Part shown: positions 7,170 through 55,900 of the stretch, one piece after another
Layout of the letters: each line of letters begins with the position of its first letter
Numbering within the stretch: the stretch's first letter is position 1
Origin: Malania oleifera
Taxonomy: Eukaryota; Streptophyta; Magnoliopsida; Santalales; Ximeniaceae
Length of the DNA stretch: 64,000 bases
NCBI RefSeq assembly: GCF_029873635.1
Contig: NC_080423.1
Location: 93,477,691 to 93,541,690 of the forward strand
Direction: 5' to 3'
The notes under the pieces: generated by a model
What the model saw: only the letters and a program-made list of their open reading frames with translations
What the model was told of the DNA's origin: nothing
Databases searched by the model: none
Translations under genes and position numbers: made by a program

Positions 7170-8018
7170 GTGGGAGCTGGTCTAGTAGAAGTGCAGATCG
7201 TTGCTATTATCATGGCAACAAAACCAGAAATAGAGAAATTCAATGGGTGTAATTTCTCCCGATGGAAATTGAAGATGAAGGAAATTTTGAGGAAGGACAA
7301 TTGCTTAGCGGCAATTGGAGTAAGACCACAAGGGATCACAATTGAGAAATGGAGCGAGATAGAGGGCAACGCTATATCCAATCTGCATTTAGCATTATCA
7401 GATTCGGTATTATTAAGCGTTAGGGAGAAGACGTCTACAAAGGAGATTTGGGATGCGCTAGGGAAACTCTATGATGTAAAGTCTCTTCACAATAAGATCT
7501 TCTTAGAGAGGAAACTCTACACTCTTCGAATGAATGAATCCATTTCGGTGACAGATCACATAAACAATCTCAGCACTCTATTTTCCCAACTTTCGGCATT
7601 GGAGTTCAAAATAGACTAGAAGGAACGAGCTGAAATTCTACTCCAAAGTATACCAGACTCGTATGATCAACTCATCATCAACTTGACAGATAATATACTC
7701 ACAAACACTCTATCCTTCGATGATGTTACAGTTGCTGTTCTGGAAGAGGAAACAAGACGCAAAAATAAGGAAGAAAAGTCGTTTAGTTCTCAACAAGTTG
7801 AGGCACTACCAATAACGAGGGTAAGGTCAACAAAACGTGGTTCTAGTGGAAGTCATAATCATTGTAGATCAAAATCAAAGAGTAAGAAAAACTTCAAATG
7901 CTACAATTGTGGCAAAAGGGGGCATATCTCGAAGGATTGTTGGCACAGAAAGAAGAATGCAGGGAAAGCTCCTGAGGAGAAAACTTCTCAAGGATGTGCA
8001 GTGAGTACCTCTTGTTAG
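7170..8018 (+). mobile_element. Copia gag fossil with zinc knuckle
   Basis: The region encodes a Copia-type Gag. The N-terminal half (from ATG 7213) has FNGCNFSRWKLKMKEIL and the middle LYDVKSLHNKIFLERKLYTL, both typical of the UBN2 gag family. Near 7899-7950 a CCHC knuckle CYNCGKRGHISKDC is complete. Sequence of this kind stops at about 8018 and no protease, integrase or RT follows. The element is defective, with at least one break inside gag and the rest lost. Confidence 0.85.
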
Positions 8019-12840: not shown

Positions 12841-13084
12841 TTGGGTTAACAATCCGAGAAAATTGTTATGGTTCTTCTAATAAGAACATTTATGAACTTT
12901 TTAATTCATAATTCTGTAGCTTTTGAACTAATTATATATAACTCAATTGAAAATTCAGCCAGCTAATAATGATGTGTAAGGAAAAAGATACTGACCTTTC
13001 AAAAACTCCCTTTTGCTTGTTGCTTTAGCTTGCTTAACCCAATTTCTTCATCTGCTAAAAGTCAAACTCTCTAACCTCCTAATG

Positions 13085-15564
13085 TGTAACACCCCGACCC
13101 CGAGGGGCTTAGGATATTAACTTTTTACCATTGATTTACAGTTGAAGCAAATAAACTCAATTTTTATTAAACCAGAGCACTAATTATTCGTATTACAATC
13201 ACTTATTTCAAAAGAAGAAAATTACACAAACATAAATATCTGAAATCATACTAATATTTCTAATCAATCTTTATTTTTTCTAATCCCCACCCGCATGCTT
13301 GCTAAGCCTGATTTCCAACATGCTCTTCAGAGTTATCTGAAATAAAAATATGATTGGAGTGAGACGACGCTCAGTAAGTAAATAAGATTATTATTAATGT
13401 GTGGCCAAAATGAGCTTTTTAAAAATTTCGTAAAATAATATTTAATACTATAACTTCAAAATTTCTTTTAGAATAAATATAAATTTAAAATTTTCTGCAT
13501 AAAACTTTTGTCATCAATTACAACAGTAAAATTTTATAATCATATACTATAACCGTTAAATTAAACTTTTAACTTTAAAACTGTATAAATATTTAATGAT
13601 AAATATACATATACTTTTTCTTATACGTTTTCTTTAGATCGTCATTTAAGCACTAGAATGATCCTTTTCATGTAAACATTCACTTTTCCTTCAAATCATC
13701 AGTGACTCTATATACGTAATTAACTATGTATAAACATATATTGTAAAAACCACCCTTAGGCCTGTTTGCTGTAAGTCATGTTTACCATCATGACTGGGTT
13801 GTGCGGTCCGAAGACTGGACTTAGCTGGCTGGCCAACCAAACTAAATCAACGTACGTAAACTTTAAGTGAGATTTTCCTTATTAAGTCCTGGTCCGGAAC
13901 CAGGTGTGCACTCATGAGAAATCTACTAACATAAATAACCACTCTGTAAACAGTGTGGGTGCACTCTGATCCGTATAAGCTTTAAGTTGCGGTACCGAGG
14001 ATCTGTAACTTTGAACTTTCGTTGTCATAACGGGTTTTAAAATCATCTTATTATAATTTGTGTAATTTAAAATAATATCGTGAAAATCTCATCTTTACTC
14101 ATATTTTCATAAAAAATGTAACGTAAAAATAAACTCATGCCACACAATTTTTGTGTTAAAAATATATATATAATTTTATTTTTGAATAGAAATAATTGCT
14201 GAAAATTTACCCGAGGGGATTAGAACATTTCTTAACTCAAAAATAGATGCAAATATATTAAAGATAGAACTAGTATAATTAAATACGCGTAAAATAAACT
14301 CATAAAAATTTTGTGGAACTAATTAACATAATTGAAATTTACTTATAAATAAACTCGGATATGAATTTTAAATAAATAAATAAATAAAACTAACATAATC
14401 AAAATTTACTTACCTTCTTCCTTACGAACACTATAACTATCTCTAAGAAATGAGATCGGAAAGAGTGGGTGATTGAGAACTTACTCAAAAATTCTCTCCA
14501 CCACAATTTCTTTCACTCACTAATTCTTCTCTTCCTTGGAAAAATTGTTGTGAAAAATGAAGGTTGAGAGCTCCCTATTTATAGGAAAATTTTGGGGAAA
14601 AAATGGAATTTATAAAAGTGTGGTAAGATGGATGAAATTATAATTTTTTTAAAATTAAAGAATGGACAAGGGATGGACAAGGTATGAGTTGAGTATGGGA
14701 TGGGGATGGAGGCCATGTGCGAGTGCTTGCCACCATTCCCATTAAATAAATTTTTAATTAACCAATTACCTAATTAATTAATCAATTAGTTAATTAATTA
14801 TTTTATTATTTTATTATTTTTCTTAATCATTATTATCATTATTATTATCGTTGTTATTACTTTTAAACTACTTTTAGTATTTATTTATTTTATTATTTAT
14901 TTTTTAACAAGAATTAAATTTAAATTTTGAAAACTCATGTGGACCCCACATGGTCTTGTGGGCCCCACACAACTTCGAGACCCAAATGGATCCTACGTAA
15001 CTCGAATAACTCTTATACGATTTTATGCATCCTACATAACTTTGAGACTCGTGTAAACCTCCATACGGTTTCGGGACTCATGTGGGCCCCACACAGTCTT
15101 GTGGGCCCCGCATAGGATACCTATATTATTATTATTTTATCATATATTTTTACAAATTATATCAGTCAACACATTATTTTATGTACTTATTTACGTATAT
15201 AAATAGTGTCTTGTGGCTCCGGGACTCATGTGGACCCCACATAGGCTTGTGGGCCCCACATATGATACCTATATTATTATCATCTTATTATGTATTTCTA
15301 CAAATTATGTCTGTCAAAACACTATTTTATGTATATATACTTATTTACATGTACAAACAGTGTCTATCCTGTTTATCCTATGAAATTCCATTTTGACCAG
15401 GCCGACCTCCAGGGAGCGATTGAACCGCAATGGTCTCTGAGCACTCACTTAGACAAGGTCTTTCTTAGGCATCAAACATGGAATCAAGAATCCTACAGAA
15501 AAACACTTCTGTATTGATATTAACTTAATGACCATTTTTATTATTTTATTATTTTTGTGCTTTA

Positions 15565-15598
<34 letters not shown>

Positions 15599-15610
15599 TG
15601 GGTCATCACA
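13085..15610 (-). repeat. 3' LTR of the WOX-carrying element
   Basis: About 2.5 kb with TG/CA ends, followed on its right by the complement of the polypurine tract. It shares essentially its whole length with 18476-20989, including a TA microsatellite near its right end (15570-15595). Confidence 0.88.
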
Positions 15611-15899
15611 ATCTCCCCTCCTTATAAAAATTTTGTCCTCGAAATTTGCTAATTTAAAATGAGTACTGTATAATTGGTTGCGCTATTTAAAAGAGTACAT
15701 TGATTAACGATTTGACTAAGTCTTAGAATAGATTGAGGGTCAATTTGGCGAAATATTTTATTTTGGGAGTTGAAGTGTGAATCGTCGGTCTAATAGAGGT
15801 TGAAATGGAAAAGAAATTCAGAAGATGTGGAGAAAGATAATTATATATATGTATATATTATACATGTCCTATAAATTAAAAATATACAAGATCTGGCCT

Positions 15900-16565
15900 T
15901 TAGAGCCTTAGATCAATGTCAACATCTATCGCAGTACTAGCGGTGTCACTGCTAACCGCCTGGGTTCTTTCTTGGCAAAGTTGACCTCTTATAATGTCGC
16001 CGGCTTGGGTCGGAAAAAGGGAGAGAGCGCCCGTTTGTTCGGCGAGGGAGGAAGAGCTGCTCTCTTCCCGAGTTATTGGTGGCCCGTGTATGAGTCTCAA
16101 TGCGAATCGGATTTCCTTGCAATGGTGAAGTAGGCCAGCATTATCCGAAACCCTTAGTGTGGTGACTGCAATATTGTCATTGTAAGGGATATGGCCCATT
16201 GGTGTGATATTAGTTGTAAGTTTCATAGTCGGAATATTCTCGATAGGGAAGAGGGTTGGAAGAATGGCAGGGGCACTGTTCGGGTTGGTAGTGGCGGAGG
16301 AGGTAATATGGAGAATTGATGGGGCAGTAGTTGAGATAGTGGCTTCTCCAACTGATTCCTGCCTACGCCTACGATTCTCAAACCAAAAGCGCACATTCCT
16401 CGGCTCGATTGGACGATACCTTCGAAGTTGTGCTGCAAGTAAGATAGTTCGCTCCACAGAAGGGAGTTCCCCTTGACTGCTGCAGAAGGCCTCCTCTAAA
16501 ATCTCTAGCTGTGCCTTGCTAGGTTTCCATCTTTGGATTGGCGATCTAGTGCTGCTCTCAGCAGC
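15900..16565 (-). pseudogene. WUSCHEL-type homeodomain ORF inside the LTR element
   Basis: The minus strand is open for 221 codons ending at 15900. Residues about 12-72 align without gaps to a WOX homeodomain: RWKPSKAQLEILEEAF for helix 1, then AAQLRRYRPIEPRNVRFWF and ENRRRR where WUS proteins have the I-E-G-K-N-V-x-x-W-F-Q-N helix 3. The rest is Ser/Thr/Pro-rich like WOX tails. Residues 181-185 read LSLFP (16011-16025), resembling the WUS box (TLxLFP), with a second LFP (PTLFP) further upstream; the last residues are IDLRL, resembling the C-terminal EAR-like repressor motif. Known WUS-clade WOX proteins are nuclear repressors that control stem cells. The homeodomain has no intron, as in a copy made from RNA. 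It is in the element's sense and the only protein-like frame there. Without a clear start it may be broken or use an unseen exon. WOX class is confident; function is not. Confidence 0.72.
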
Positions 16566-16711
16566 TTAAAGAGTTGGGTGATTTGGCAACATTTTTGAGT
16601 AATGAGACAACCAAGAGAAAAGTTAGGAAGAACTAATCTCTTCAAACCGAAATGTGGTTGTTCAAGATGGTAGAAAACTGTGATGCTTAGAGTTTGAGGA
16701 GGACGTACCCT

Positions 16712-16719
16712 TTTTATAA
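16712..16719 (-). promoter_or_regulatory. TATA box upstream of the WOX-like ORF
   Basis: On the minus strand the sequence is CTTATAAAAAGG, a good plant TATA context, about 150 bases upstream of the open frame. The intervening DNA would be a 5' leader. A separate promoter inside the element, distinct from the LTR promoter, is inferred from position only. Confidence 0.5.
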
Positions 16720-16739
16720 GGAAATGACCGCGTGTTGTG

Positions 16740-17036
16740 GAAATCGAGAGAGAGCGACGTGTACTACGAGAATCGAGGGAGAGCGACGCGTGTCACGGAT
16801 ATCGAGCAACGCATTTTGCACAAATCAAGGGATAACGATGTGTGTCGCGAGAACCGAGAGGGGGTGACGCGTGTCACAGATATTGATTAACGCATTTTGC
16901 ACAAATCGAGGGAGAACGACGTGTGTCACGAGAATCGAGAGAGAGTGACGCGTGTCACAGATATTGAGCAACGCGTTTTGCACAAATCGAGGGATAGCGA
17001 CATGTGTCGCGAAAATTGAGCGAGCGACACGTATTG
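16740..17036. repeat. 81-bp tandem array with ACGT cores
   Basis: About 3.6 units repeat with an 81-bp period; CAAATCrAGGG recurs at 16821, 16902 and 16983. Each unit carries GCGACGTGTGTC-like and GACGCGTGTCAC stretches, so many ACGT/ACGCGT cores of the kind bound by plant bZIP factors. The array lies directly upstream of the minus-strand TATA box at 16712 and is much richer in GC than the surrounding element. An upstream regulatory role is inferred. Confidence 0.8.
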
Positions 17037-17116
17037 CAAAATTTGCAGACTCTAGGTTCTTTTTATGTTTTTACATCTTTATTAATGTTTTAACTATAAT
17101 TAATTTCATTCTTAGA

Positions 17117-17282
17117 TCACCACTTGGGTGGGTGGCCTAGTGGTAAGGAACCGGCCGCGCATCCATGTGATCGTGGGTTCGAGTCCCCACTATGCCCAAG
17201 TGGTCTCATGCCCTGGCCTTGCTTCCGGGGTAAGTGAGCTAGAGCCGATGATTTTCACTCATGAGGCCCTTTTTTTTTTTTT
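17117..17282 (+). mobile_element. tRNA-derived SINE (Au-like, T tail)
   Basis: An A box TGGCCTAGTGG (17133-17143) and a B box GGTTCGAGTCC (17176-17186) stand at tRNA-like spacing. The body is about 150 bases and ends in a run of about 13 T (17270-17282), as in Au-like plant SINEs. It is inserted in the interior of the LTR element, opposite to its sense. It does not fold as a full tRNA. Target duplications were not clear. Confidence 0.8.
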
Positions 17283-17298
17283 AACTACAAGTGTACCC

Positions 17299-17299
<1 letters not shown>

Positions 17300-17354
<55 letters not shown>
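17300..17354. repeat. (TA)n microsatellite, about 26 units
   Basis: An almost pure TA dinucleotide run of about 52 bases follows the SINE tail. It is long enough to be highly variable between individuals. Confidence 0.95.
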
Positions 17355-17356
<2 letters not shown>

Positions 17357-17514
17357 CATTAACATTATTATTATTATTATTTATTATTAATAAATATATG
17401 TTGGGCATGTTTAGCCAATTGATGATTTGACATTGGTTAGTTATTTAAAGGAAATTAGTTAATTTTTATATTGCTTTCATTAATGGAATTTTTTTTTTTT
17501 TAGAAAAAATTAAG

Positions 17515-17875
17515 TTGTATTAACTTTTATAAATTTATACTAAATTAAAGATTTCGTCAAAATTTGTACTCCTAAATCAAACTTGGATACTTGATGGAAA
17601 TTGAATATGTAATGGGAAAAAATAGATATACATATTTAACTTGCACATACTAAGAGATTATACATATATATATTTTTTTGAATTTAAATATAATAAGCAA
17701 TATTTGAATTATATTTAATTCCTTATAAACTGATACAAAATTAAAATTAAAGATTTTGTCAAAATATATATTCCTAAATTAAGCTTGAATGTTTTGTTAA
17801 TAACTGAATATGTAACTTAAAAATACATATTCATATCCAACTTATGCATGCAAAGAAATTTTTTGGATAAATTCA
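17515..17875. repeat. Diverged tandem duplication, about 200-bp period
   Basis: Blocks at about 17515-17690 and 17715-17870 share ATTAAAGATTTyGTCAAAA, CTTGnATnyTTkrTnrA and GAATATGTAA words. It lies in the AT-rich leader-side interior of the LTR element. No coding content. Confidence 0.55.
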
Positions 17876-18462
17876 GATTTCATAATAGACCGTTTGTTCA
17901 TATCTATTTGTATGTGTAGCACTTCTAAATTCAATAAGGTCTAATGGGTTATCTCTTATATATTTAGTGAAAATAACAACAGTGAAGATAATTAAATCTC
18001 AGATATTATTATTATATTTATATATATATATATATATAAATTTTAAGTTATTAATACATTTGACAATTAATTATGAATCATCAATATGGGTACGTGTTTT
18101 TACAAACATAAATAACATATTTAAATTAATTAACGTGTCTTCAATAATACTACTATTTTTCTTAGAGAATTTATAATTATTACCTGTCCTTGAGAGCCTT
18201 CACGTAAATCTCATTTCCTCCAATGCTACTATCTTTAAGATCCATTCTTAAATAATAATCAAATGTTATTTTAAATTCATAAATCTATTATTAGCGTATA
18301 ATAATATAACAAACTAAAATAAATATTCTAAACTACCCAATCCTACCCAAATCATGTTTTATACCTAAGTTTTGGTAAAATTTATATATTAGAGTATGGA
18401 GAACTTATATATTATGCTCTGGTAAATTATTTCTTAAAGTCTACAGAACCTATAATCAATTA

Positions 18463-18475
18463 CTCTGATACCAAA
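18463..18475 (-). other. Primer-binding site
   Basis: Read on the minus strand next to the LTR end, TTTGGTATCAGAG matches the plant primer site that pairs with the 3' end of initiator Met-tRNA. Its place fixes the element's orientation as minus. Confidence 0.85.
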
Positions 18476-20941
18476 TGTAACACCCCGACCCCGAGGGGCC
18501 TGGGATATTAACTTTTTACCATTGATTTACAGTAGAAGCAAATAAACTCAATTTTTATTAAACCAGAGCACTAATTATTCGTATTACAATCACTTATTTC
18601 AAAAGGAGAAAATTACACAAATATAAATATCTGAAATCATACTAATATTTCTAATCAATCTTTATTTTTTCTAATCCCCACCCGCATGCTTGCTAAGCCT
18701 GATTTCCAATATGCTCTTCAGAGTTATCTGAAATAAAAATATGATTGGAGTGAGACGACGCTCAGTAAGTAAATAAGATTATTATTAATGTGTGGCCAAA
18801 ATGAGCTTTTTAAAAATTTTGTAAAATAATATTTAATACTATAACTTCAAATTTTCTTTTAGAATAAATATAAATTTAAAAATTTCTGCATAAAACTTTT
18901 GTCATCAATTACAACAGTAAAATTTTATAATCATATACTATAACCGTTAAATTAAACTTTTAACTTTAAAATTGTATAAATATTTAATGATAAATATACA
19001 TATACTTTTTCTTATACGTTTTCTTTAGATCGTCATTTAAGCACTAGAATGATCCTTTTCATGTAAACATTCACTTTTCCTTCAAATCATCAGTGACTCT
19101 ATATACGTAATTAACTATGTATAAACATATATTGTAAAAACCACCCTTAGGCCTGTTTGCTGTAAGTCATGTTTACCACCATGACTGGGTTGTGCGGTCC
19201 GAAGACTGGACTTAGCTGGCTGGCCAACCAAACTAAATCAACGTACGTAAACTTTAAGTGAGATTTTCCTTATTAAGTCCTGGTCCGGAACCAGGTGTGC
19301 ACTCAGGAGAAATCTACTAACATAAATAACCACTCTGTAAATAGTGTGGGTGCACTCTGATCCGTATAAGCTTTAAGCTGCGGTACCGAGCAGTAACTTT
19401 GAACTTTCGTTATCATAAGGGGTTTTAAAATCATCTTATTATAATTTATGTAATTTAAAATAATATCGTGAAAATCTCATCTTTACTCATATTTTCATAA
19501 AAAATGTAACGTAAAAATAAACTCATGTCACACAATTTTTGTGTTAAAAATATATATAATTTTATTTTTGAATAGAAATAATTGTTGAAAATTTACCCGA
19601 GGGGATTAGAACATTTCTTAACTCAAAAATAGATGCAAATATATTAAAGATAGAACTAGTATAATTAAATACGCGTAAAATAAACTCATGGAAATTTTGT
19701 GGAACTAATTAACATAATTGAAATTTACTTATAAATAAACTCGGGTATGAATTTTAAATAAATAAATAAATAAAACTAACATAATCAAAATTCACTTACC
19801 TTCTTCCTTACGAACACTGTAACTATCTCTAAGAAATGAGATCGGAAAGAGTGGGTGATTGAGAACTTACTCAAAAATTCTCTCTCCACCACAATTTCTT
19901 TCACTCACTAATTCTTCTCTTCCTTGAAAAAATTGTTGTGAAAAATGAAGGTTGAGAGCTTCCTATTTATAGGAAAATTTTGGGGAAGAAATAGAATTTA
20001 TAAAAGTGTGGTAAGATGGATGAAATTATAATTTTTTTAAAATTAAAAAATGGGCAAGGTATGGGTTAAGTATGGAATGGGGATGGAGGTCATGTGCGAG
20101 TGCTTGCCACCATTCCCATTAAATAAATTTTTAATTAACCAATTACCTAATTAATTAATCAATTAGTTAATTAATTATTTTATTATTTTATTATTTTTCT
20201 TAATCATTATTATCATTATTATTATCGTTGTTATTACTTTTAAACTATTTTTAGTATTTATTTATTTTATTATTTATTTTTGAATAAGAATTAAATTTAA
20301 ATTTTAAAAACTCATGTGGGCCTCAAATGATCTTGTGGGCTCCACACAACTTCGAGACCCGAATGGATCCTACGTAACTCGAATAACTCTTATACGATTT
20401 TATGCATCCTACATAACTTTGAGACTCGTGTAAACCTTCATACGGTTTCGGGACTCATGTGGGCCCTACACAGTCTTGTGGGCCCCGCATAGGATACCTA
20501 TATTATTATTATTTTATCATATATTTCTACAAATTATATCAGTCAAAACATTATTTTATATACTTATTTACGTATATAAACAGTGTCTTGTGACTCAAGG
20601 ACTCATGTAAACCCCACATAGTCTTGTGGGCCCCACATATGATACCTATATTATTATCATCTTATTGTGTATTTCTACAAATTATGTCTATCAAAATACT
20701 ATTTTATGTATATATACTTATTTACGTGTACAAACAGTGTCTATCCTGTTTATCCTATGAAATTTCATTTTGACCAGGCCGACCTCCAGGGAGCGACTGA
20801 GCCGCAATGGTCTCTGAGCACTCGCTTAAACAAGGTCTTTCTTAGGCATCAAACATGGAATCAAGGATCCTACAGAAAAACACTTCTGTATTGATATTAA
20901 CTCAATGACCATTTTTATTATTTTATTATTTTTGTGCTTTA

Positions 20942-20977
<36 letters not shown>

Positions 20978-20989
20978 TGCGTCATCACA
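18476..20989 (-). repeat. 5' LTR of the WOX-carrying element
   Basis: About 2.5 kb, matching 13085-15610 nearly throughout, with TG/CA ends and a TA microsatellite near 20945-20975. The right neighbour is the target-site half CAATG. Confidence 0.88.
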
Positions 20990-20994
20990 CAATG

Positions 20995-29235: not shown

Positions 29236-32200
29236 ATGGTGTCTAAATTCAAACAGGCTGTCATATTTTTTCTATTTTTCATAGTGTTGTGTGGTTATGC
29301 TATAGCAGAGCAAGAAAAAGAAATTCCACAAACAATACGAGCTGCTCCACACAAGGATGTAGGAATTAATGTTATAGATGGCACTGGTTCTAAGAATGCT
29401 TTTAGTTCAGAGAGTACCAGTGAAAAGCTGGTTGAGAGGAAGGGTGGGAACAGTAGGGTGTCAGTGGCCACAGTTGCATTGTTTACATTGGCAATGGCTG
29501 CTGCCACTGGTTTAGGTGCTCTACCATTCTTCTTTGTGGAGCTTGATCCCCAGTGGGCTGGAATATGCAATGGAATGGCTGCTGGAGTGATGTTGGCTGC
29601 AAGCTTTGACCTAATACAGGAAGGTCAAGATCATGGGAGTGGCAGCTGGGTTGTGATTGGAATTTTGTCTGGCGGCATATTCATATGGCTTTGTAAGAAG
29701 GTGATGTCCTTTAATCTTCCAAATTTCAGCTAAATTATTTTACTAATTAGTGGCAGATGGCATTACAATTTTTCCATATCTGAACTAACAACTACATGTA
29801 AAATGTTGTCTGTTTCTAATGAGGTTGAGTAAAAGTAAAATTTAGAAAAAGAAAAACTTGAAATCAGCTGAATTATGACACACCTATACCTATATTGGTA
29901 TGTGCATAGAAAGATCTTAACAAAACAAACAAAACGAATTATAACAAATAGGTAAAATATGGCTGTCATTGTCACATAGATTCTAACAGTTCATTTAGAT
30001 TTCATCTATCTTGGCTGCATTGTCTGTCTTGAACAGTTACAGAAAAAATAAAAATAAAATAAAATAACCTTCTTCATGAAGGTTAAAGGGGATTGTTTTA
30101 CCATTGTATTAAGTGCTTGTGGTCAAGAGCAATGTGCATGGACTATAGACTTCAGAAAAAAAAAGTGTTAAAAGATGAAGGTGCTCTATTTGCTGTATAG
30201 CAACATTATTACATGATTTCCTTTAACTATTTTCAAAATTCAATTGGATTCACAACATTGTTCAATGAAGTTTTGTATTAGATTTCCCTTTTAGGACATT
30301 ATTTGAGAATTAAGGTTTGGTGACCAGAAAGAGCAAAACCCTGAGCTTGGGAAAAACATGTAACCTGTGTTTACAACCAGCAACAATTTTTCTGATGAAA
30401 AATTTCACAAGGAATACATGATTAAAATTAGAGTTGCCTTATCCATCCACATTTAAATAGTAGCTAACCTATAGTTTAGGTTTGCAATCAGGTGTGCATG
30501 TTGATCTCCCTTAAATATTTAGCTTATTGGAAAATTGCAGTTATGCGTGTGTATATTAACTGTCTCTTGGGTTTTGCGTTTACGTGTGCAACATCCAGAG
30601 TTTGAATCTTATAATAAAAGACTCTGGGTCTTTTCTGTAAGATGTTTGGGCATACCAACTTACCTTTATGTCTGACACTAATTTCTAATTGCAGTTCCTT
30701 GAACAATATGGGGAAGTAAGCATGCTAGACATAAAAGGTGCAGAGGCAGCTAAAGTTGTTCTTGTTATTGGAATAATGACTCTTCATTCCTTTGGGGAGG
30801 GCTCAGGTGTTGGAGTCTCCTTCGCTGGTCCAAAAGGTTTATCTCAGGGTCTTTTGGTAACTTTGGCCATAGCCGTGCACAACATACCCGAGGGTTTAGC
30901 TGTGAGTATGGTGCTTGCATCAAGGGGAGTTTCTCCTCAGAATGCGATGTTGTGGAGTGTAATCACATCATTACCTCAGGTAATGTTTTGTTCATTCTCA
31001 TTACTGATTGCTGTATGGGTTTTGCGCATGTATTGCTATATATTAGGCAGGAGTATTCTAGAATCAATTTCTGACTCATTTTAATATTTTAAAAGGACTA
31101 ACAGATAGTATTTAGAAATACATGTGCAGGATCACATCATTCCCTGCATATGGACAATGCTTTTCACATTGTTTGCAGCTTGATTTCTGAAATCTTGAGA
31201 CCTCAAAATTATATTATTTAAGATGTTACATGCCTTCACAGTTGGACTGCTGAACACTATGCAGTTCCATTTCATGCATCTATGATTGGTTTGTTTTGCA
31301 TACATTTCATTTATTGGATTTTAGAGTCCAAATAACTCTGTCAACTTGACATGTATTGGTCATTTTCATTTTTGGTTGTGGCAGCCCATCGTAGCAGTCC
31401 CTTCATTCATATGTGCTGATGCATTTAACAAGTTCCTACCATTCTGTACGGGCTTTGCTGCTGGATGTATGATCTGGATGGTCATTGCTGAGGTTCTTCC
31501 TGATGGATTTAAGGTAACATGCGTTGTTAATGAACATGCACAGAAATGCAGACTACATTGTAAAATTTCTTTTAATATATTTTTTATTTTTTTATTTTTG
31601 TTTTCATTAGAATTGTTTTCTCCATAATGCACTTTTCTACTGTAGTATTATGGAATGTAGACTAATTTTTAAAATTTATTTTTAATATGTCATATTAAAT
31701 GACATTTTTTATAATTAATGCATAATGCACCTCACAGTATTGGCTTAACTTGTAGAATGGAAATTGTGGCATTATTTCTGATAGATTAACCATATATATT
31801 TTTTAGGATGAAAGAATTTTCATACAAAGTCAATTTAATACTTTATCAGCTATCTGGCAAAGATTTTGGGAAACAAGTGTAAAACCACAAAGAGTAGACC
31901 TGCTGTCAACCAGCCTTAATGTAGAGCATAAGGGGCTAGGCTCAAACCTGTAACTCTCCCACATGTGGGAGAGTAAGATTTTGCTTCTTTTTCTTTTTTT
32001 ATTTGCACCACTCTTTAACTTCTTGAGCAGACATTATTTCACTAAACCAACCATTGCTTTGAGTATTCTATGTAAAATTCTTGTGCATCAGGTTCCATTT
32101 CAATTGGATATTGTAAGTTATACTTGTCCATGACATTAGTGTTGACTGCATAAATTATAAGTTTAACTTAAGGAAGATGGAATAGGTATAGATATCTGAT

Positions 32201-35200
32201 CATTTGAAAATTGACATGCAGTATATGTATATATTCTGAACTAAGTAAAAACATATACAACATGCTAAGTTTAGCAAAAATGAGATGGATGAGCAGCGTA
32301 ACCGTAATAGATAAACTAATGAATGAGCACATCCTTGTAAACTATGAGTAGCACTTGTAGAAGAAAAATGGCAGCAGGGTGGTTCTGATGGTTTTGTTAC
32401 TTGCATAAACTAGATAACTCACTAGTGAGAAAGAATAAGTTGGATGGAGGTAGTTAGGAGATTTGATGGCACTTCAACTTCCCAGGAATGTTCTTCATGA
32501 TTGAGCAGAATGGCAGAAAAGGATTGATATAACCAACGTCATCTAGTGAGACTTAAGTTGTTGATTTTTCTGTCGCATCTATGTATATCTTACTAATTTG
32601 AAGGACTGAAGGTCAAAACGCATATCACAGTTTGTGATAGGATATAAACTGTATAATTTTGTAACGATTGGAACCTTATTTTAAAAAAATGGTAACATTT
32701 AATAAGCTCTAGCCATTGATGACATAATAGCCAAAATAAGCACTTAACCATCTCTGCATCATAACCATATCTTTTAACCTCTCTCTGGGGAAAGGGAAGG
32801 GTGGCCAATTGACTGCAGTGTGGTTTCTTCTATCTAAGTAGGAATTTTTTTACGTATTTTTGTGATCAAGGTGCTATTTTTTCTCTCATGTGTGTGTCAC
32901 ATGTTCGTTGTAATGGGCAGTTGAAGTGGTGTTGTTGAATAAATCCATCATTGATCAGGAGAGAAACTTGTAGTGTGGGTTAAGGGTTTATAATTTATAT
33001 TCTAGTTTGACATCTTGACCAAGTAAGTAATAGGTGATGCAAAATGGTATTTGTTTCTAGGAGGTCCTCCTGGGCTAATTCCAGTCTATATTTGTTCCTC
33101 CACAATGTTTGCCATGGTGTGCTTTGTTCTCTTAGCATAGTTTGGCCCCATTGCTAACAGCTTAAAATTTTAGGATAATTGGTGACCTAATAGAAAGTTT
33201 TCAGTTGGTTCAGTGACAACGTAAGTAACCTACTCATTTACACTTGAATAATGTGCAGTGTTAGGCCGTTCCAAATGATACTATACTCTTTCATGTTGCT
33301 CATTCCCATTCTTGTAAGCTTTCATTTTAGTTTTTAAGTATATATCTAGGAAACTGAAGTTTAGATCGGGCATTTTATTGATAATCATTTAGCCACATTG
33401 AAACATATTTGTTTTCCATGTCGTGCATGTCTTTTTCATATATATGAGTTAATTATTGTGGCTAAATGTGTGTAGTGTCAATTTTTGAGAAGCAATAACA
33501 TTTAATGCACTTTTGTTGCTTACATTGATTTCACTTTCTTTTCTCGTATCTATTTTTCCGTGTAATGGTATGAATTCTAACTAGTTGTGTTGATTCCTGC
33601 TTTATCTTTTCCTGAATATATTTGGACGTTCTCTTCATGTGCTCGTAGGTCCTTTTTATTTTGCAATGTGTAATTCTTAAATTATTTTTTTCAGATAACA
33701 AAAATTAATTAACAATTAAACAGAAGTATAGTAGGAAGAGGATAAGACATGCTCCTCAAAACCGCTAATTACAATAATGCTGCCTCCAATCCATTTGAAG
33801 ATCAGACGGGGATGTCACCCCAAAGATTCCAAAAGAATGTGCCCAAATGAAGCCAAAAAATTAACTCTATCCCACATCAGAGAAGCAGAAGTCAACTGTG
33901 CTTTGAATATCCTCACATTCCTCTCAAGCCATAACATCAAAAAGATTGCGTGTGCTGCACCCAAACCAACACCATAAAGCCCTCCCTCTTTTACTCTTCC
34001 AAAAACCCGATGTCTTACCATTAAGATCTCATATGCATTATCTGGAGCCACCCACTATTCGCTAAAACATGAGAAAAAGCATTTGAAAGCTTTCTCACCA
34101 ATGACAGTGAAGAAGAAGGTGCTATGCGTATCTGTGCTGAGAACCTTATGTTGGTATAACCATATAAATGTTGGATGTTTCAAATTAAAAAAATATCTGT
34201 TTAATAAATATTATATAACAGTCATTGATTTTATTTTAATTAAGTATATGTTAAATTTAATATATTAGTTTTAATGTTTTAAAATATTAACTACTATTTT
34301 AACAGTTTCATATTTATGATGCTGGAAGTTATACTTTACGTCATTTCAAGATACGGTTTTTCTTCTTTGAAATAACTTTATCTTCTATTCTTTTTTTAGA
34401 TCTATATTTTATTGGGTAACTAAATGATACTACATTTCCTATCGCTCTGGTGTTTGTGAGTGCACACAAAACCAAGCCAGCTGAGTAATCTTGGAGATTG
34501 TGCGCTCAGTGACTATATGCACCGAGAAATGTTTGCCGTAGGCACGAAATCGGCTTTAAGGACAGTGGTCCTTCCATGCTTCAACTTCTAATAAGTATTT
34601 GTATTTTTATTTAATATTAATTTTATTAGTAAATATTTTTCCATACATTATATTTCCATCACCTTATAGGGCTTCCTCTTCCTGTTACAAGTCATTCATA
34701 GTAATCCTGTTGAGAGATTGGATCTAAATGAAAGCCTAGACCTTAGTAGGAACCTTAGCCTTCCAAATAACATGATAAACGAGAAGGGGTTGTAGGTCTA
34801 GAAAGATGAGAAAATAAAGATTTAGAAGAAAAGACAAGAATCCTCTAACCAGACCCAAGCATCTCCCATATTGTGAGAAATGAAAGAATCCAACACACTC
34901 AGGAAAGAAGTAAGATCATCAACTTCTCTTTTGGTAACACTCGTAAAGAAATGGAAGTCTTAAGAAAGAGAGCTTACATCTTTCACAAAAAATTTAAAAA
35001 AACCAACTGTTATTGGTGCATTAGGAAATCTGGAAAGATGAGACAACAGCTCCAACGAAGTCTTTCCCACCCAAATGTCTTCCCAAAACCAAATTCTATT
35101 GCCATTACCCACTGAAGCAAGTAAGAAGAAAGAATAAATGAGCAGCTTGGGAAACATTGCTTTCCATTTCTAAGTTGATCCAAGCACCAGATTTGTACTA

Positions 35201-37845
35201 AAATATCAAGTTTGAGCCTAAATGATTATTACGTCACCCTTTTTGTGATTTTTTAATTTTTATGTGTGCAAGATGAGGTTCTAAAAGATGTTTAATTGTT
35301 TGCTTATTCAAACTGATACCAGTTTCTTCTGGCCTCTTGATTTTAGGAAGCCTCTCCATCTCATGTTGCATCAGCTGCTACATTGTCCGTAGCTTTTATG
35401 GAAGCTCTCAGCACCGTGTTCCAAAATTTCAGCCATAGGTAAAAGCAATTTCTTTTTTTTTTTTACCATTTTTCTCTTTTGGGTAACTGCAGAATCTGAT
35501 GTTTTTTATCCCTTCTTTTTTTGTATGGGTTAGCCTTTTATAGAGTGCCCTCTCATTGATTTGGCTGTAGGTATCTGTACATGATAACCATTGTGTCTCT
35601 TATTTATTTGCCAATTATGGCTTCTCTTAGATTATGTTCTTATGCAATATTTTTAGGTTTTGTTTTATGATTATACTGTTTTAAAAAATTGACATCCTTT
35701 TATGGTTACATTCAGTATATTATTATATTGTTTCATGATTGTCGAGCCTTAGATGTATGTGGTTTATCTTGTGTTTTTAATGCGATTGATATCTGTTTCC
35801 TTTTTTTCTTGCATGAAAAATCGTAGGCAGGGATGGGTAACCAACTCATGTAAACTCCCCCTAGGTGTGGCAAAAGGAGCCTTTGCCTGCTGGGAAACAA
35901 TGTCGAAAAGGGTCTAGATGAACAAGTTTTCCTTAGGGAGCCCTGTGTGGGATACAAGTGCTCCTGCAGACATAAGATGCAAGCATGCATGTAGCATAAG
36001 ATATCCTCATAAAAAAATGTTGATCTTACCATCAGGCCAACATTTTTTTTCCAATGTATTCACAGAAGAATATATAGCATATTAATTTGACACACATAAA
36101 ACCTTGAGGTTCAGCTTAACCTGTCCTGCTTTTTTTTTTTTTTTTCCTTTTTTCCCCTTAGAGAAAGAACTTCATTAACAGGAGAGAATTACAAAGAATG
36201 GAGGATAAGAAATCCTCCTTAAAAATAGTTACAATAAAGGCCCCTTATAATCCCTCTAAAGATCAGATAACAAAACTCCCCAAAAGAACTTCAAAGAATG
36301 AGTCCGTAAGGCAGCAAGAATAACAGCACTATCCCATAATAAATGTGATGGAGTTGTTTTGCCATTAAATCCTCGTCATTCCTTTTGATCCTAAAGTCCA
36401 AAAATGAGCAAAAAGATATGCATCTTCATGAAACCATCCCTTTCTAACTTTCCTATTCTCAAAACCTCTATACTGCACCAACAAAGAGCGTCAACGGTAT
36501 TTAGCAGCACCAATGCCTCGCCAAAAAATGAAAAAAAAGATAGGTCTGCTTAGTAGCTACCCAATAATGAAGAAACACCTTTCTGCTATTTTAATAAATT
36601 CTTACTGGAGTGTCTTCCTACTCAATAAATGAGTGGTTTCTGCCTCCCTTTAAAAAATCAGTGTCTTAACATATGTATAGATTATGTTTTGATTTATTAA
36701 TTTAACATATGCACACACATGAAAATTTTATCCCGCATCACATGTATACTGAACTTGACACCTGCAGCAGACTTATCAACCTAAAATTTTATGGACTAAT
36801 CATGTAGAACGTACACATATGTGAATAAACATACTTGCAGCCTTTTGCTTTATTAATATAACCTATTAAAAGGAGTCAGACTGCCTGATTCATTGACCAG
36901 TGCTTACTTCATTTTGAATGATATGATAAAAACCTTATATTCTGACACAACTTAGCAAATTGAAATTGGGTGTTGGGCCTGCTCAATCTGTAGTTTTCAT
37001 GTACTGAATTTTTAATTGCTCTGCTTTGCAGCTCAGAAGATGTGTCTGGTTTCTTTGTTTCACTACTTTTTGGCCTTGGCCCATTGCTTGGTGGCGTCGT
37101 TCTTGTTGCATTTGCTCTGGCTTTTAGTCTTCAGCATGCTGTGCTTACTGGTGTAGCCTCTGGCATTGCCTTTGTTCTTGGTGCTTGGCGACCACTACAG
37201 CTGCTTCTATCTTCAAAAATGGGAATTCTGCCGCTCTTGTTGCTGCTTGCGATGGGATCCGCATCCACCCACATTTCAACCTCCATTGCTTTAAAAAATG
37301 CAGGTCGCAAAAGGGCTTCAGTGAATACTATATCTGCAGTAACAGGCTTTTCAGTGAGTGCCCTCACCCTCCAGTCATTCTTGTCATGCATCACAATTGC
37401 CTTCCATGCTTTGGCCGAGGGGCTTGCACTCGGGGTGGCTGCACCAAAAGCCTATGGACTTGGTCAGCACATGGTCCTTCCTGTCTCGCTTCACGGACTG
37501 CCTCGGGGTGCTGCTGTGGCTAGCTGCATCTTTGGAGCAACAAACAGCTGGCATGGGTCCCTTGCGGCTGCCGCAATGATTGGTTTTATGGGTCCATTGT
37601 CTGCAATTGGAGCAATACTTGCACAAATCGATTATAGTGGTCTCGACCACTTAATGGTCTTTGCTTGTGGAGGATTACTACCAAGTTTTGGGGGCATAGT
37701 TAGCAGAGCTGTAAAATTGGATTCAAAGAAGAGCAGTTTTGGGATCATGGTGGGCATGGGATTTGCCAGTGTATGCCTGATGTGTACCAAGTTGGTTTGC
37801 TTGCACACACCTTACTGCAACTCAGCACCAGAGGCTGTCAGATGA
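29236..37845 (+). CDS. ZIP-family metal transporter (At3g08650-like)
   Basis: Coding exons 29236-29700, 30695-30979, 31385-31513, 35347-35438 and 37032-37845, all with GT/AG borders and keeping frame, give 594 residues. The product resembles a conserved plant ZIP protein (Arabidopsis At3g08650 as I recall it), ending VCLHTPYCNSAPEAVR. It should be a multi-pass membrane protein moving zinc or related divalent metals toward the cytosol; the substrate is inferred from family. Residues 1-25 form a signal peptide (KFKQAVIFFLFFIVLCGYA), followed by a polar lumenal segment. LHSFGEGSGVG (about 185) and VHNIPEGLAV (His near 217) are the metal-site motifs of ZIP helices; a further FHALAEGLALG lies near 449. 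Intron 3 (31514-35346) is 3.8 kb and holds a LINE fragment with a solo LTR inside. A polyadenylation signal AATAAA is at 38151. Nothing suggests the gene is broken. Confidence 0.93.
31953..31974. repeat. Perfect 22-bp palindrome in intron 3
   Basis: ACTCTCCCACA is followed at once by its reverse complement TGTGGGAGAGT. It lies in the third coding-sequence intron of the ZIP gene. No role is known; it could form a hairpin in the pre-mRNA. Confidence 0.9.
33690..35170 (-). mobile_element. LINE 3' portion in the ZIP intron, split by a solo LTR
   Basis: The minus strand encodes the C-terminal part of a plant L1-like ORF2. SVGNGNRIWFWEDIWVGKTS (about 35115-35050) comes first, then LNDREVEEL-like sequence. 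After the inserted LTR come GVGLGAAHAIFLMLWLERN and VRIF (about 33960-33890), typical of the zinc-finger RVT tail. A short T run at about 33685 marks the 3' end. The LINE is dead, has no endonuclease or RT core here and has several frame breaks. Confidence 0.8.
34149..34661 (+). mobile_element. Solo LTR, copy A, with perfect target duplication
   Basis: The 513-bp unit starts TGTTGGTATAACC and ends TTTCCATCA. The 5-bp repeats CCTTA flank it at 34144-34148 and 34662-34666. It matches, in inverted orientation, 59654-60138 across its length, including GGTGTTTGTGAGTGCACACA and GGTCCTTCCATGCTTC. TG/CA-type ends and 5-bp duplications are LTR hallmarks; size and sequence suggest Copia. It sits inside the LINE remnant, so it is younger than the LINE. 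Confidence 0.85.
36125..36660 (-). mobile_element. LINE 3' end fragment in ZIP intron 4
   Basis: A T-rich tract (36131-36155) is followed by AACTTCATTAACAGGAGAGA and ATTACAAAGAATGG, the usual complement of a plant LINE 3' untranslated end, then about 450 bases of LINE-like DNA with no clean frame. It is in the last intron, antisense to the gene. Confidence 0.5.
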
Positions 37846-44713: not shown

Positions 44714-46939
44714 GCAAAATTTGTAATAACCCCAAAAATAGTCATACAAGATTAGTGGAGTGATTTCAAAAACAAAAAATAAATTAAATTAAAATTAAAA
44801 TTTAAAATTTAAATAATTAATTAATTAATTAATAATTAATAATTAAAATAATATAATATAATATTATAACATATATATATAAGTATATAATGTAATATTA
44901 TTATAATATAATATATTATAACTTATGAATCTTCCTCGAGGAATCCTTCAGGAACCAGCATCTAAATTTCAAATTTTCAGAGAATGCAGAAACACCCCCC
45001 CCCTTAAGCACTTTGTCTCTCCTTCGTTCTCTCTCCCACTCTCCTTAATTTCTCAGTTGATTTTTGTCCAATTGAAAATCAGAAAATACTGTTGGGCTGC
45101 TCCATTCTTCGCCACCAACATTTCTGCTAGAACGGATTTGTCATAGGAGTAACGCAGGTATATTTCTTAGGGTAAGCTAAATTCTCACTCTTACGTCAAT
45201 TTTTTGTAAATCTTAAGCCTAATTGATGATCGGACACCGCCACGAGAATCTAGGGATGATTCTCTACAAGTCTAGTGGAGCGGATTTCTCATGGAGTCGT
45301 TGTAGGTATAACCCCAAAATTAGGATAAGGGGGTTATTAAGGGGCTAATTATTATTTAATTAATGTAGATTTAGAAATGTTAGAATATTGGGCATTCTGA
45401 AGTTGAAGTAGGGTTTTTGAAATTCAGGGTTCGGTTAAGCGTCGCGGGTGTAATTTTGGGACCCTGCATAGTTCAGGAAACCAGGTAAGAGTGTTTAATA
45501 TTAGTTTAAATGTTAATTTGCAGTATATGAAGCCTAAGGAAGGTTATATGGGTATTATTTTGATAAATGAGTTAATTAATTTGGGAAAAACGTGAATTGC
45601 AGGATTTGAATTTCGGGCGCCGGGGGTGTAGGATCTGGGTTTTAACGAGACTCTCAATAAGTCAAGTAAGAGAAATAAATTATAGCAGTATTTTTGATAT
45701 TTATTGATTGAATGAATATGTTAAAAATGAAGTTATGATATTTTTCCCTATGAAATTTGTATATTATAAATATTAGATGAAAATTGTGTGGCATATGATG
45801 CATATTGAAAAATGTGAAATTTGATGATGAGTATTTTATGAGAAAATGATGAAATAAGAACTATCGATATATTTGTTGGAAATGATGAAAATGATATATA
45901 AATATGTGTATAGAAATGATTTTTATGAAAATGGGAAAGTATGAATACTGATTTGAGTATGTTGAGAAGTATTGAAAAACGTAAAATGAGTTATATGCTA
46001 ACATGAGAATGAAATGAATGTGAAAGGAGATATATATGTATTACTATGAAATGAATTTTGAAATGTGGGACTATTGCAATGTAAATTCTGCAATATGAAC
46101 ATTGAAATGTGGGAGTTGAAATATGAATATTGAAATGTAAATATTGAAATGAGTATACTGGGAAATGTGAACATTACAAAGTGCAAAAGCTACAATGGGA
46201 TCATTGGAAATATGATTGATGAAATGTCAATACCGCATAATGATTGCGGGTATGTGGTAATGATAATCCTGATAGATGGATATGGAAATCCTAATGATGG
46301 GTTATGATATTGAGCATGGTACCGTTGCTAGTGGTGTTAGTGTAACCACACAGACTCGTGGAGCATGTGGCGTGATAGTCGACTGAGTTGTATAGCAGAG
46401 TTATTGTGCCCTCTGAGTCTGAATCAGTGCTATAGGCCGGCCAGTCATACTACAGATATGAGATATGTGATATGATATTTTAATCTAACTGAGTCGGCCA
46501 ATTGCAGCTAGATCTAGCTTTCGGGCCACACAACCCTGACCATGGGGGTAAGCATGAAGTAGTGAATATCCTAAGGGCAGTCATAAGTTACAAACACGAG
46601 TATATTGGTTATCAGGGACACTCATGAGTTAGATGAAAATGGAAATGCAACGAAAAATGGAAATGAAATGAAAGTGGAAATGCAATGAAAGAAAATGAGG
46701 GAAGAAATAGTGTGAGTTAATAATATAAATAAATGAGACGAAGTAAAACTCTCTGCCTGAGGGCTTACTAAGTAAGGTGAGTGCTCTGATAATTATCAGC
46801 TGCTGCTGAACTTGAGTAATCATGTAATGACCCGAATTTAGAAGGGTATTTAAATAATAAAATAGGGGAATGGAGACCGGAAACAGAAGGAGGACGACAT
46901 TGAACTTTAGGAGGGAAAACAAAAAAAGGGATTAACAGG

Positions 46940-52913: not shown

Positions 52914-55900
52914 ATGAGAAAGCTCAAGTTCCATGAGAAGAAGCTTTTGAAGAAGGTTAATTTCCTAGAATGGAAGAGAGAAGGGGGTCACAGAGAAGCT
53001 CATGTTATGCATCGTTATCACGTCACTGGGAGGGATGATTATAAAAAGTGAGTAAAATCTTTATCTCTGTGTGCGTGTGTTGATTTTGTAATTTGTATGC
53101 GGATACTTGAATTGGGCTGTGCTTATTATGTAGTCCTTAATTTTTCCGCATTATTAAATAGGTATTCGAGCGTGTGCCGGATGGCGCAGAAGCTTGTGAA
53201 CATCTTGAAGCAAATGGGCCCAAGAGATCCCTTTCGGATTGAGATGACCGATTTGCTCCTTGAAAAACTGTGAGTAACTGGTCGTACAAGGGACACGAAA
53301 GTTCCTTTTTTTTTTTTTAATAAAAAAAGTTCCTCATTGTGGTAAATTAAAGCGTGGGATTACTGCAGGACTTCTTTATGTTAAGTTTATTTTGATTTTA
53401 GTATGAATTGTTTCCTGTTTCATCATTTTGTTGGAAAATGAGGAACTCAGCCTACCTGTTTATGATTTGTTTGGAGAAGTCAGGCTCCACATTGGTTGTT
53501 TGTTAGGGGATAAGTCATTTTATAGCATCAAAAGCTCCTGGGAGAACATTATAATGAAAAAAAAAAATGTTCATTGTTTGTTTGGTGGGGTTTGAAAACC
53601 TTAGTGAACATAACGGATACATAATTCGATTGCATTTGGTTTTTCTGTATTCAATTGTTAATGGACGTTAGATAACCAAGGATTGTTTGTTCTTGTGGGC
53701 AATTGGCAAACATTAGTATCAGTGGTACTCTGCAAATTTTGATGGTGTAAGGCTGACTCAACTTGGTGGAGTCAAGGTGATGCTTGGTTGTTTTGTTACA
53801 AGAGCTTGCCGACCATGTCATGTATGCTTGTCAGCTACAAATAAAAATGCCGGCCTTGGCTGTTTCCTTCTAGAATTGAACTTGCTTTAATGTTTAATGT
53901 TCTCATTGCATATGGTGTTACCAGTTAGCACTGCAACAGGGAATTCTTTCTACTTGACTCTTCTTTTTGTCTAAACTTTTCTTTCTTCACTTATTGAAGC
54001 TTTCTTCATGTTCTTTTTGTTTGAATAATGTTATTTGGAAGGCTAAGGTTCCTTTTAGTATCAAGACATTACTTGGACATAAAGTCTCAACAGCATTAAT
54101 ATGAATGACTTGTCGTAGGTGAGGAGGATATGTAAGGCTATTAGATTTCTGCAGGATGTGTTCATAGTTTAATGAGACTAATGCGCATCAGGTGGCTAGA
54201 CAATTTTAGGTAACACTTCTCTATTTCTGGTAAATCATGGTTAACACCACAAGCAGTAGAATACTTCATGATTTCATGTTGGTGCATTTTGGGGTTCTGG
54301 GAGAACTACAAGAGGTAGAATTTTGTGTAAATTTCCTGTGCATATTATTCTTTGGACTTTGAGGCTTGAGAGGAATGTTAAGATTAATGACAAGACGAAT
54401 GCCTCTTATCTATTATGTGACAGTTTTTTTCCTAGCTTCTCATAGGAGGATGCCTCATTCTCCAACTCTTATATGTCTACGTTTTTTTTTTTTTCTAATT
54501 ATTGAATTTCTTTTATTATTGAAAAAATTCAACTTAGTGATTGTGTATGAAGAATATATTCGTGTATTGTATAGGCTATATTCAAAAATCAATTTATTGA
54601 TATCTTTTATGAAATTATGATTTTAGCATAGTTGATAGCATACGAATACATACATAAGTGCATGCATGCATACATACATACATACTTGTCACGGTCCGAC
54701 TATTTTTGCACTGTTGTGAAGGGCCGTGCGGCGCTAGCTAAAGCACTCTTGCTTAACTAGCCAGCCTATCGTTTACCAACATTCATCCACGAAGCACTTT
54801 CATTAACATTCATTCAGATAGCAGTGGAAACAATAATCAATTCATGAAAGTCGTGACAAGCAAGCAGTAACATTGAAGCAAACGTAATTCATTAACAAAT
54901 CCTCCGTTGACATATTGTACTTAGCGAGGGAGGCAAGTAGGCTAAGCACGTTGACAATTGCTAATGAGTTTTACAATGACTGATGAACACTCACCCTCCC
55001 CTAAAGAGGTTTTTATGTAATTATCATCTTGACACTAGGAAACATCAAAGTGACCGAGGAGTCATACTGCCTTATTTGGCTTACAAAGACTCTACTAGTA
55101 GAAAATAACCCTACACTAGTATTTACATGATGGAAACCCATCCCAAGCACATGAGATAAGCGGTCACAGGCAAGCATAATGCCCTGAACAAGCTTAGCTC
55201 GTGACATTCTCCCCCACTTATGCGGTTGACGTCCTCGTAGACTTTTGGCGATAGGTACACTTCAACTTTGTCCACGAATGACTTCAAATCTTCCGCAGAA
55301 ATTCAGCTGATTTCTTTGTCATCAAGGCACTTCCACTTCACTAAGAACTTTTGCCGCTTCTTCCTTGAGGATATGAACTTTCTATCTGCAAGGATCTCTT
55401 CAACTTCATGTCTGTCAAGTTGCACTGTCTTCAACTCTGCGTTGTTTGACTGACTTCTGCTCAGGTCGTTGGTGTTGGCGTTGAATGGCTTGAGGCAGTT
55501 GACATGAAACTGCGGTCTTCTCTCCTGATTTGCCCACTTCTTCATCTGCTTAGAAGCTTTCTCCAGATAGGCTTAGGCAAACTTTGCATTTTGTCTCCCT
55601 TCACTGGTGAAGATGTACGCCCTAGGACGCTTTCGTTTGTACGGCTCGCCCACTGTGTGAGGTAACAGTGGCAGCTGGCCTATAACAAGCTCAAAAGGGC
55701 TCTTGTTGATTGTTGAGCGCCTTTGGGTGTTGCCACAGAACGGAACCACATCAAGTAGTTGCACGCCATTCTTCTGGTTGTCGTTGACACAATGGCACAA
55801 GTACTCATCTAGCAGCTCTTTGAATCTCTTCATTTGTCCGTCTGTCTGTCGATGATAACTCGAAGAGATGTCAAGGTGTGACCTGAATATCCTGAAAAAC

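What the first reader, a model, noticed from the sequence alone, without database searches (positions are those of the whole stretch)
15900..16565. WUSCHEL-type homeodomain gene carried inside an LTR retroelement
Seen: the only protein-like frame between two similar 2.5 kb LTRs aligns without gaps to a WOX homeodomain (NVRFWFENRR in helix 3) and keeps both C-terminal hallmarks of the WUS clade in order, an LSLFP resembling the WUS box and a terminal DLRL resembling the EAR-like motif. It lies in the element's sense between primer site and polypurine tract. Known: WUS-clade WOX factors control plant stem cells. Inferred: the element captured a cellular WOX transcript and can spread a possible competitor of WOX repressors. 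Whether such a carrier family has been described I cannot check.
Basis: partly seen in the sequence, partly recalled or inferred. Interest (0 to 1): 0.88.

Follow-up and report, generated by a model that had tools for sequence, protein, structure and literature searches.

The report
Plant jumping gene carrying WUSCHEL-like gene
A plant retrotransposon with no visible replication genes of its own carries, between its two end repeats, a worn copy of a gene resembling WUSCHEL, the regulator of plant stem cells; a meeting report describes similar gene-carrying elements in wild beans, so this is a striking new example rather than a new kind of thing.

Summary
On the minus strand, 15900-16565 is a 221-codon open frame with a real homeodomain (Pfam 7.1e-9). 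Its nearest solved structures, by sequence and by fold, are STENOFOLIA and WUSCHEL. It keeps WUS base-contact residues R38, N90 and R94 (Q89 is E) and has a WUS-box-like ALSLFP and a terminal DLRL; both together occurred in 0 of 200,000 shuffles. It lies in sense inside an LTR pair (2,526 and 2,514 bp, K2P 0.028) with primer site, polypurine tract and imperfect 5-bp target duplication. No gag-pol match was found in the interior pieces scanned. Best reading: a non-autonomous LTR retrotransposon with a captured, intronless WUS-type gene. This copy is probably not translatable as it stands: an in-frame TAA separates the nearest in-frame ATG from the homeodomain. A 'competitor' role is untested. 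Such carriers have been reported: a 2023 meeting report describes many WOX copies between LTRs with target duplications in Vigna marina and V. riukiuensis, over 1000 in the latter. Host species, other copies and expression could not be examined. A TAAT cluster upstream of the LTR TATA-like box is only suggestive.

The parts
13080..13084 (.). left target-site duplication, TAATG
   Evidence: flanks TAATG (left) and CAATG (right), 4 of 5 identical
13085..15610 (-). 3' LTR (2526 bp), TGTGATGA...GGTGTTACA in element sense
   Evidence: 2441 of 2510 aligned bases identical to the other LTR
14576..14583 (-). TATA-box-like TATAAATA in the 3' LTR (copy in 5' LTR at 19964-19971)
   Evidence: pattern scan, five TATAAAWA matches on this strand of the element in all; consensus match only
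14741..14800 (.). cluster of 14 TAAT/ATTA tetramers in 60 bp, upstream of the LTR TATA-like box (copy at 20118-20177)
   Evidence: 0 of 500 local shuffles reach 14 (max 10), tested on this LTR only; low-complexity sequence, speculative
15611..15623 (-). polypurine tract AAGGAGGGGAGAT next to the 3' LTR
15900..16565 (-). WUS-type homeodomain open frame, 221 codons plus stop, no in-frame ATG before the homeodomain
16350..16535 (-). homeodomain (residues 11-72)
16011..16028 (-). WUS-box-like ALSLFP (residues 180-185)
   Evidence: [TA]LxLFP in 93 of 200,000 shuffles; the pattern was widened to A after seeing the sequence
15903..15914 (-). terminal EAR-like DLRL (residues 218-221)
   Evidence: terminal [DE]LxL(x) in 355 of 200,000 shuffles; both motifs together 0
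16566..16568 (-). in-frame TAA between the nearest upstream in-frame ATG (16590-16592) and the homeodomain
16711..16718 (-). possible internal TATA box (TATAAAAA), about 120 nt upstream of the ATG
   Evidence: pattern scan, one of five such matches in the element; consensus match only
16741..17024 (-). 81-bp tandem repeat, 3.5 copies, upstream of the gene
17128..17282 (+). SINE-like insertion: A-box-like TGGCCTAGTGG, B-box GGTTCGAGTCC, T tail
   Evidence: read directly from sequence; box consensus recalled; a stricter A/B-box pattern did not match and ARAGORN finds no tRNA
18463..18473 (-). primer binding site TGGTATCAGAG, 2 nt inside the 5' LTR (initiator-Met type, recalled)
18476..20989 (-). 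5' LTR (2514 bp)
20990..20994 (.). right target-site duplication, CAATG

Best explanation
A non-autonomous LTR retrotransposon (minus strand, 13085-20989) carries as cargo a WUS-type WOX gene captured from a host, in place of gag-pol genes. Shown: LTR pair with primer site, purine tract and near-perfect target duplication; homeodomain with WUS-like contacts; C-terminal motifs in WUS order; no gag-pol match in the interior pieces scanned. Inferred: the gene entered through RNA (template switching during reverse transcription), because the frame runs unbroken although cellular WOX genes have introns. Inferred: the element moved with enzymes supplied in trans by an autonomous relative. Inferred: an intact copy would make a nuclear DNA-binding repressor that recruits co-repressors through the WUS-box/EAR-like parts. 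Inferred: this copy, with its in-frame stop before the homeodomain, is probably a decaying passenger. The frame is unlikely to have stayed open by chance over the divergence seen, so it was probably under protein-level constraint for much of its history, in the host before capture or in the element afterwards.
For: Homeodomain profile and PDB hits. Fold of residues 1-80 (pLDDT 72): the top six Foldseek chains are WUS-HD, the seventh STENOFOLIA (best E 9.9e-3, none under 1e-3). WUS contacts named in PMC7203112 (passages) mapped: R38, W39, N83, N90, R94 kept. Motif shuffles: both motifs 0 of 200,000. LTRs, primer site, purine tract, target duplication. Ten further interior pieces against Pfam gave one hit far below its cut-off (13.7 against 27 bits, E 0.071). 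Neutral simulation: when homeodomain identity has fallen to 23/62, 0 of 400 frames are open; at 37/62, 10 of 400; at 47/62, 38 of 400. WOX genes of Brassica species have two or three exons in most cases and all 12 physic nut WOX coding sequences have introns (passages of PMC6482515, and PMC7325900). No shared inverted or direct 12-mers between 15611-15905 and 17025-17130.
Against: No second copy was seen, so family-wide carriage is not shown. The target duplication has one mismatch. The homeodomain is only 19-23 of 62 identical to ten recalled WOX homeodomains, with no clear clade (STENOFOLIA 23, WOX13 23, WUS 19). Q89 to E, R96 to E, A93 to R and G77 to R differ from WUS. Codon-position GC shows little periodicity and 1 of 1000 shuffles has as long a frame. 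In the mildest simulation (47/62) about one frame in ten stays open, so constraint is not proven if most of the divergence lies on other branches. A TATA-like box and tandem repeats upstream of the frame are not expected of a plain cDNA capture.
Confidence: 0.8

Rival explanations
1. Post-insertion nesting: a gag-pol-less LTR element into which a WOX fragment was later inserted by another process (Helitron, Pack-type transposon, or retroposed WOX mRNA).
For: GC is 0.42-0.52 in the 250-bp windows from 16000 to 17249 but 0.18-0.27 from 17250 to 18499; a SINE-like piece sits next to it; upstream TATA-like box and repeats.
Against: No shared inverted or direct 12-mers (at most 1 mismatch) in the two flanks of the block, a weak test since shuffles average only 0.4 chance pairs and short or worn ends would be missed; the frame is in element sense and lies near the purine tract.
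Confidence: 0.12
2. The element carries a working accessory regulator: a WUS-like repressor that the family keeps because it acts on meristem genes or on its own LTR (TAAT cluster upstream of the LTR TATA-like box).
For: Constraint inferred; contacts and motifs kept; TAAT cluster of 14 in 60 bp exceeds all 500 local shuffles; TAATTA 9 per LTR against shuffle means of 4.9 and 5.3, reached by 17 and 25 of 300 shuffles; WUS-HD is crystallised on TAAT DNA.
Against: In-frame stop and no ATG before the homeodomain here. TAAT/ATTA totals in the LTRs are not above shuffles (79 against 80.0; 77 against 81.5); TGAATGAA and TCACGTGA are absent, TTAATGG is at the chance level and TGAA is below it. The cluster is low-complexity and a denser one (18) lies at 44807 outside the element.
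Confidence: 0.1
3. A diverged host WOX gene sits between two LTR copies by coincidence or recombination, not carried by the element.
For: TATA-like box and upstream repeats look gene-like; only one copy seen.
Against: Primer site and purine tract abut the LTRs, and the outer flanks are nearly identical: one insertion event brought LTRs and interior together unless the gene was nested later.
Confidence: 0.04

Closest known systems
WOX-carrying LTR elements of Vigna marina and V. riukiuensis (PMC10714607, passages; it reports work of K. Naito and cites bioRxiv 2022.03.28.486085, which I did not see)
   Same: WOX-family gene between two LTRs with target duplications
   Different: There the LTRs are described as identical and copies as many (over 1000 in V. 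riukiuensis); here the LTRs are 97% identical and one copy is visible. The passage gives no sequence, so kinship is untested; the window could even be from Vigna.
LTR retrotransposons with captured host genes or additional ORFs in plants (PMC3726574, PMC7264820, PMC11963269, PMC13317346)
   Same: Frame other than gag-pol inside an LTR element; both orientations are described (passage of PMC11963269)
   Different: Words beginning homeo, WUS or WOX do not occur in the held main texts of these four papers
Arabidopsis WUSCHEL and Medicago STENOFOLIA
   Same: Homeodomain fold, R38/N90/R94, gapless alignment to the WUS homeodomain, WUS-box-like then EAR-like end
   Different: Homeodomain about one third identical; Q89 to E; no intron in the frame; inside an LTR element; no in-frame ATG before the homeodomain

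Membership tests
LTR retrotransposon (non-autonomous) | two similar LTRs with TG...CA ends and target-site duplication | tested here: met
   duplication 4 of 5 bases
LTR retrotransposon (non-autonomous) | primer binding site and polypurine tract at the inner LTR edges | tested here: met
   tRNA type recalled
LTR retrotransposon (non-autonomous) | no gag-pol of its own | tested here: met
   no gag-pol match in 11 of the 19 interior pieces listed (a list cut at its 40 longest rows); LTR pieces not scanned
Ty3/gypsy Tekay-type lineage | reverse transcriptase phylogeny | not testable with these tools
   no pol found in the element; the lineage idea is recalled only
WOX family | WOX-type homeodomain | tested here: met
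WOX family, WUS clade | WUS-box (TLxLFP type) after the homeodomain | tested here: met
   ALSLFP, T to A in first place; motif consensus recalled, presence of WUS-box and EAR in WUS from the legend
WOX family, WUS clade | placement in the WUS clade by phylogeny | tested here: inconclusive
   homeodomain identities 19-23 of 62 across ten recalled sequences, no tree built
Captured-gene LTR element | intronless copy of a gene that has introns in the host | tested here: inconclusive
   frame is unbroken; WOX genes of other species have introns but intron places and the host gene were not available
Vigna WOX-LTR family | sequence kinship of LTRs or cargo | not testable with these tools
   no Vigna sequence was available to me

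The most novel reading that the evidence does not exclude
A retrotransposon family has long kept its own WUS-like repressor as a working gene. Made in shoot stem cells, it would bind the TAAT cluster upstream of the LTR TATA-like box and host WUS targets, timing or enabling the element's activity in the cells that give rise to the germ line.
Probability: 0.08. Interest if true: 0.88.

Novelty: new member of a known kind. Interest (0 to 1): 0.52.

Why it matters
A mobile element carrying a stem-cell regulator could multiply homeodomain-repressor genes through a genome and inflate WOX gene counts. With the Vigna report it suggests that WOX capture by LTR elements may be recurrent or old, which can be tested across plant genomes. 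If any copies are intact, they offer a test of whether retrotransposons exploit meristem regulators.

Tried and rejected
Relatives by sequence: viral contigs (10 pattern matches, none confirmed) and genome contigs (77 pattern matches, none confirmed); expected, since these are viral and prokaryote collections. A whole-genome search was impossible (no genome held). The whole-protein fold was too poor to use (pLDDT 39.9); only the homeodomain model was searched. WUS target motifs in the LTRs: totals not enriched. Nested DNA transposon: no shared 12-mers in the flanks tested; of 145 inverted-repeat pairs in the interior only the 25 longest were shown, AT-rich ones. Rfam: 0 matches at gathering score in the window. 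Clade by homeodomain identity: unresolved, and no tree was built because the comparison sequences were recalled.

Literature: ten searches. Several listings were cut (for example 20 of 245 papers, 12 of 51, 30 of 54). In what I saw, one paper describes WOX genes between LTRs, the Vigna report. A Vigna reflexo-pilosa paper passage reports WOX family expansion without mentioning LTRs. Twelve papers were opened, by word search only; I saw passages, not whole texts. In PMC7264820 and PMC3726574 the terms searched did not occur. PMC8521107, PMC12026529 and PMC9917227 gave nothing of use.

Full report
What is there. The window is from a plant (inferred from the WUS/STENOFOLIA-type homology; species unknown and no genome held). 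On the minus strand lies an LTR element: 5' LTR 20989-18476, primer-site-like TGGTATCAGAG at 18473-18463, interior of 2865 bp, purine tract at 15623-15611, 3' LTR 15610-13085. The LTRs match at 2441 of 2510 aligned positions, K2P 0.028; with a commonly used plant rate of 1.3e-8 per site per year (recalled) that is about 1 million years. The flanking five bases are TAATG and CAATG. In a self-comparison the element matched nothing else in the window at E 1e-5.

The gene. 16565-15900 is open for 221 codons; 1 of 1000 dinucleotide shuffles of its segment had a run as long. Pfam gives only Homeodomain, 7.1e-9. Among PDB sequences the top two are STENOFOLIA and WUSCHEL; the next is at E=0.19. A single-sequence model of residues 1-80 (pLDDT 72) finds six WUS-HD chains first and STENOFOLIA seventh in the PDB, with E-values of 0.0099 to 0.078. 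Of the DNA-contact residues given for WUS in PMC7203112 (passages), R38, N83, N90 and R94 are identical; K82 and K92 are R; Y86 is F; Q89 and R96 are E; A93 is R; R100 was not mapped. The anchoring W39 is kept; G77, whose change to E was linked to loss of WUS self-interaction in work discussed there, is R. The C-terminal part holds ALSLFP and ends in DLRL, in the order of WUS-box and EAR. In 200,000 shuffles of that part the pattern [TA]LxLFP occurred 93 times, the terminal pattern 355 times and both 0 times. The patterns were written after seeing the sequence, so these numbers are somewhat generous; the plainer LxLFP occurred in 113 of 50,000 shuffles.

How old and how constrained. Homeodomain identity to ten recalled WOX sequences is 19-23 of 62, so the protein is far from every WOX tried. 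Under neutral change, 0 of 400 simulated frames were open at 23/62 identity, 10 of 400 at 37/62 and 38 of 400 at 47/62. The frame was thus probably kept as protein for much of its divergence. Whether that happened in a fast-changing host gene before capture or inside the element cannot be told from one copy. Against strong recent constraint, codon-position GC is nearly flat and an in-frame TAA (16568-16566) cuts the nearest in-frame ATG (16592-16590) from the homeodomain; the next in-frame ATG lies after it. Splicing around the stop was not tested and is not excluded.

Capture and movement. The frame runs without a break through homeodomain, WUS-box-like and EAR-like parts, while WOX genes of other plants have introns (passages); this favours capture through RNA. 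I could not check intron places. A TATA-like box at 16718 (one of five such matches in the element) and 3.5 copies of an 81-bp repeat lie just upstream, so the cargo may have, or have gained, its own promoter. Eleven of the 19 interior pieces listed, including the frame itself, were scanned against Pfam. Besides the homeodomain there was one hit far below its cut-off. Movement therefore probably needed enzymes from another element.

Possible self-regulation. In both LTRs 14 TAAT/ATTA tetramers fall in 60 bp (14741-14800, 20118-20177), about 150-220 bp upstream, in element sense, of a TATAAATA at 14583/19971. For the left LTR, none of 500 local shuffles reached 14 (max 10) and whole-LTR shuffles reached at most 12. 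TAATTA is modestly raised (9 per LTR; 17 and 25 of 300 shuffles reach it). Yet overall TAAT counts are not raised, TGAATGAA and TCACGTGA are absent, TTAATGG is at chance, TGAA is below chance, and a denser stretch (18) lies outside the element. I treat this as a lead only.

What is known. The meeting report PMC10714607 (passages) says that V. marina and V. riukiuensis have accumulated many WOX copies, more than 1000 in V. riukiuensis, mostly surrounded by identical LTRs with typical target duplications. That is the same kind of thing. Four papers on captured genes or additional ORFs in plant LTR elements have no word beginning homeo, WUS or WOX in their held main texts. Within the ten searches made, whose listings were partly cut, the Vigna report is the only precedent I found. 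Hence: new member of a known kind, with unusual divergence and a visibly broken start in this copy.

Noticed in passing
17128-17282: SINE-like piece (pol III A- and B-box-like sequences, T tail) inside the element, on the opposite strand.
   Followed up: partly
16741-17024: 81-bp tandem repeat, a multiple of three, overlapping an 81-codon stop-free run on the minus strand (17070-16828) in another frame than the homeodomain; no Pfam hit.
   Followed up: partly
55573-57618: Open frame with aspartic protease and integrase zinc-binding matches (Pfam): remains of another, gag-pol type LTR element.
   Followed up: no
7170-8018: Copia-type gag and zinc-knuckle frames (Pfam).
   Followed up: no
29236-37845: Probable zinc transporter gene in pieces (ZIP match at 30689-31084); the frames at 29236-29733 and 37042-37845 gave no Pfam hit on their own, so their membership is a guess.
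   Followed up: no
61511-61882: Frame with an S4 RNA-binding domain, IMP3-like by recall.
   Followed up: no
44807-44866: Densest TAAT/ATTA stretch of the window (18 in 60 bp), outside the element.
   Followed up: no
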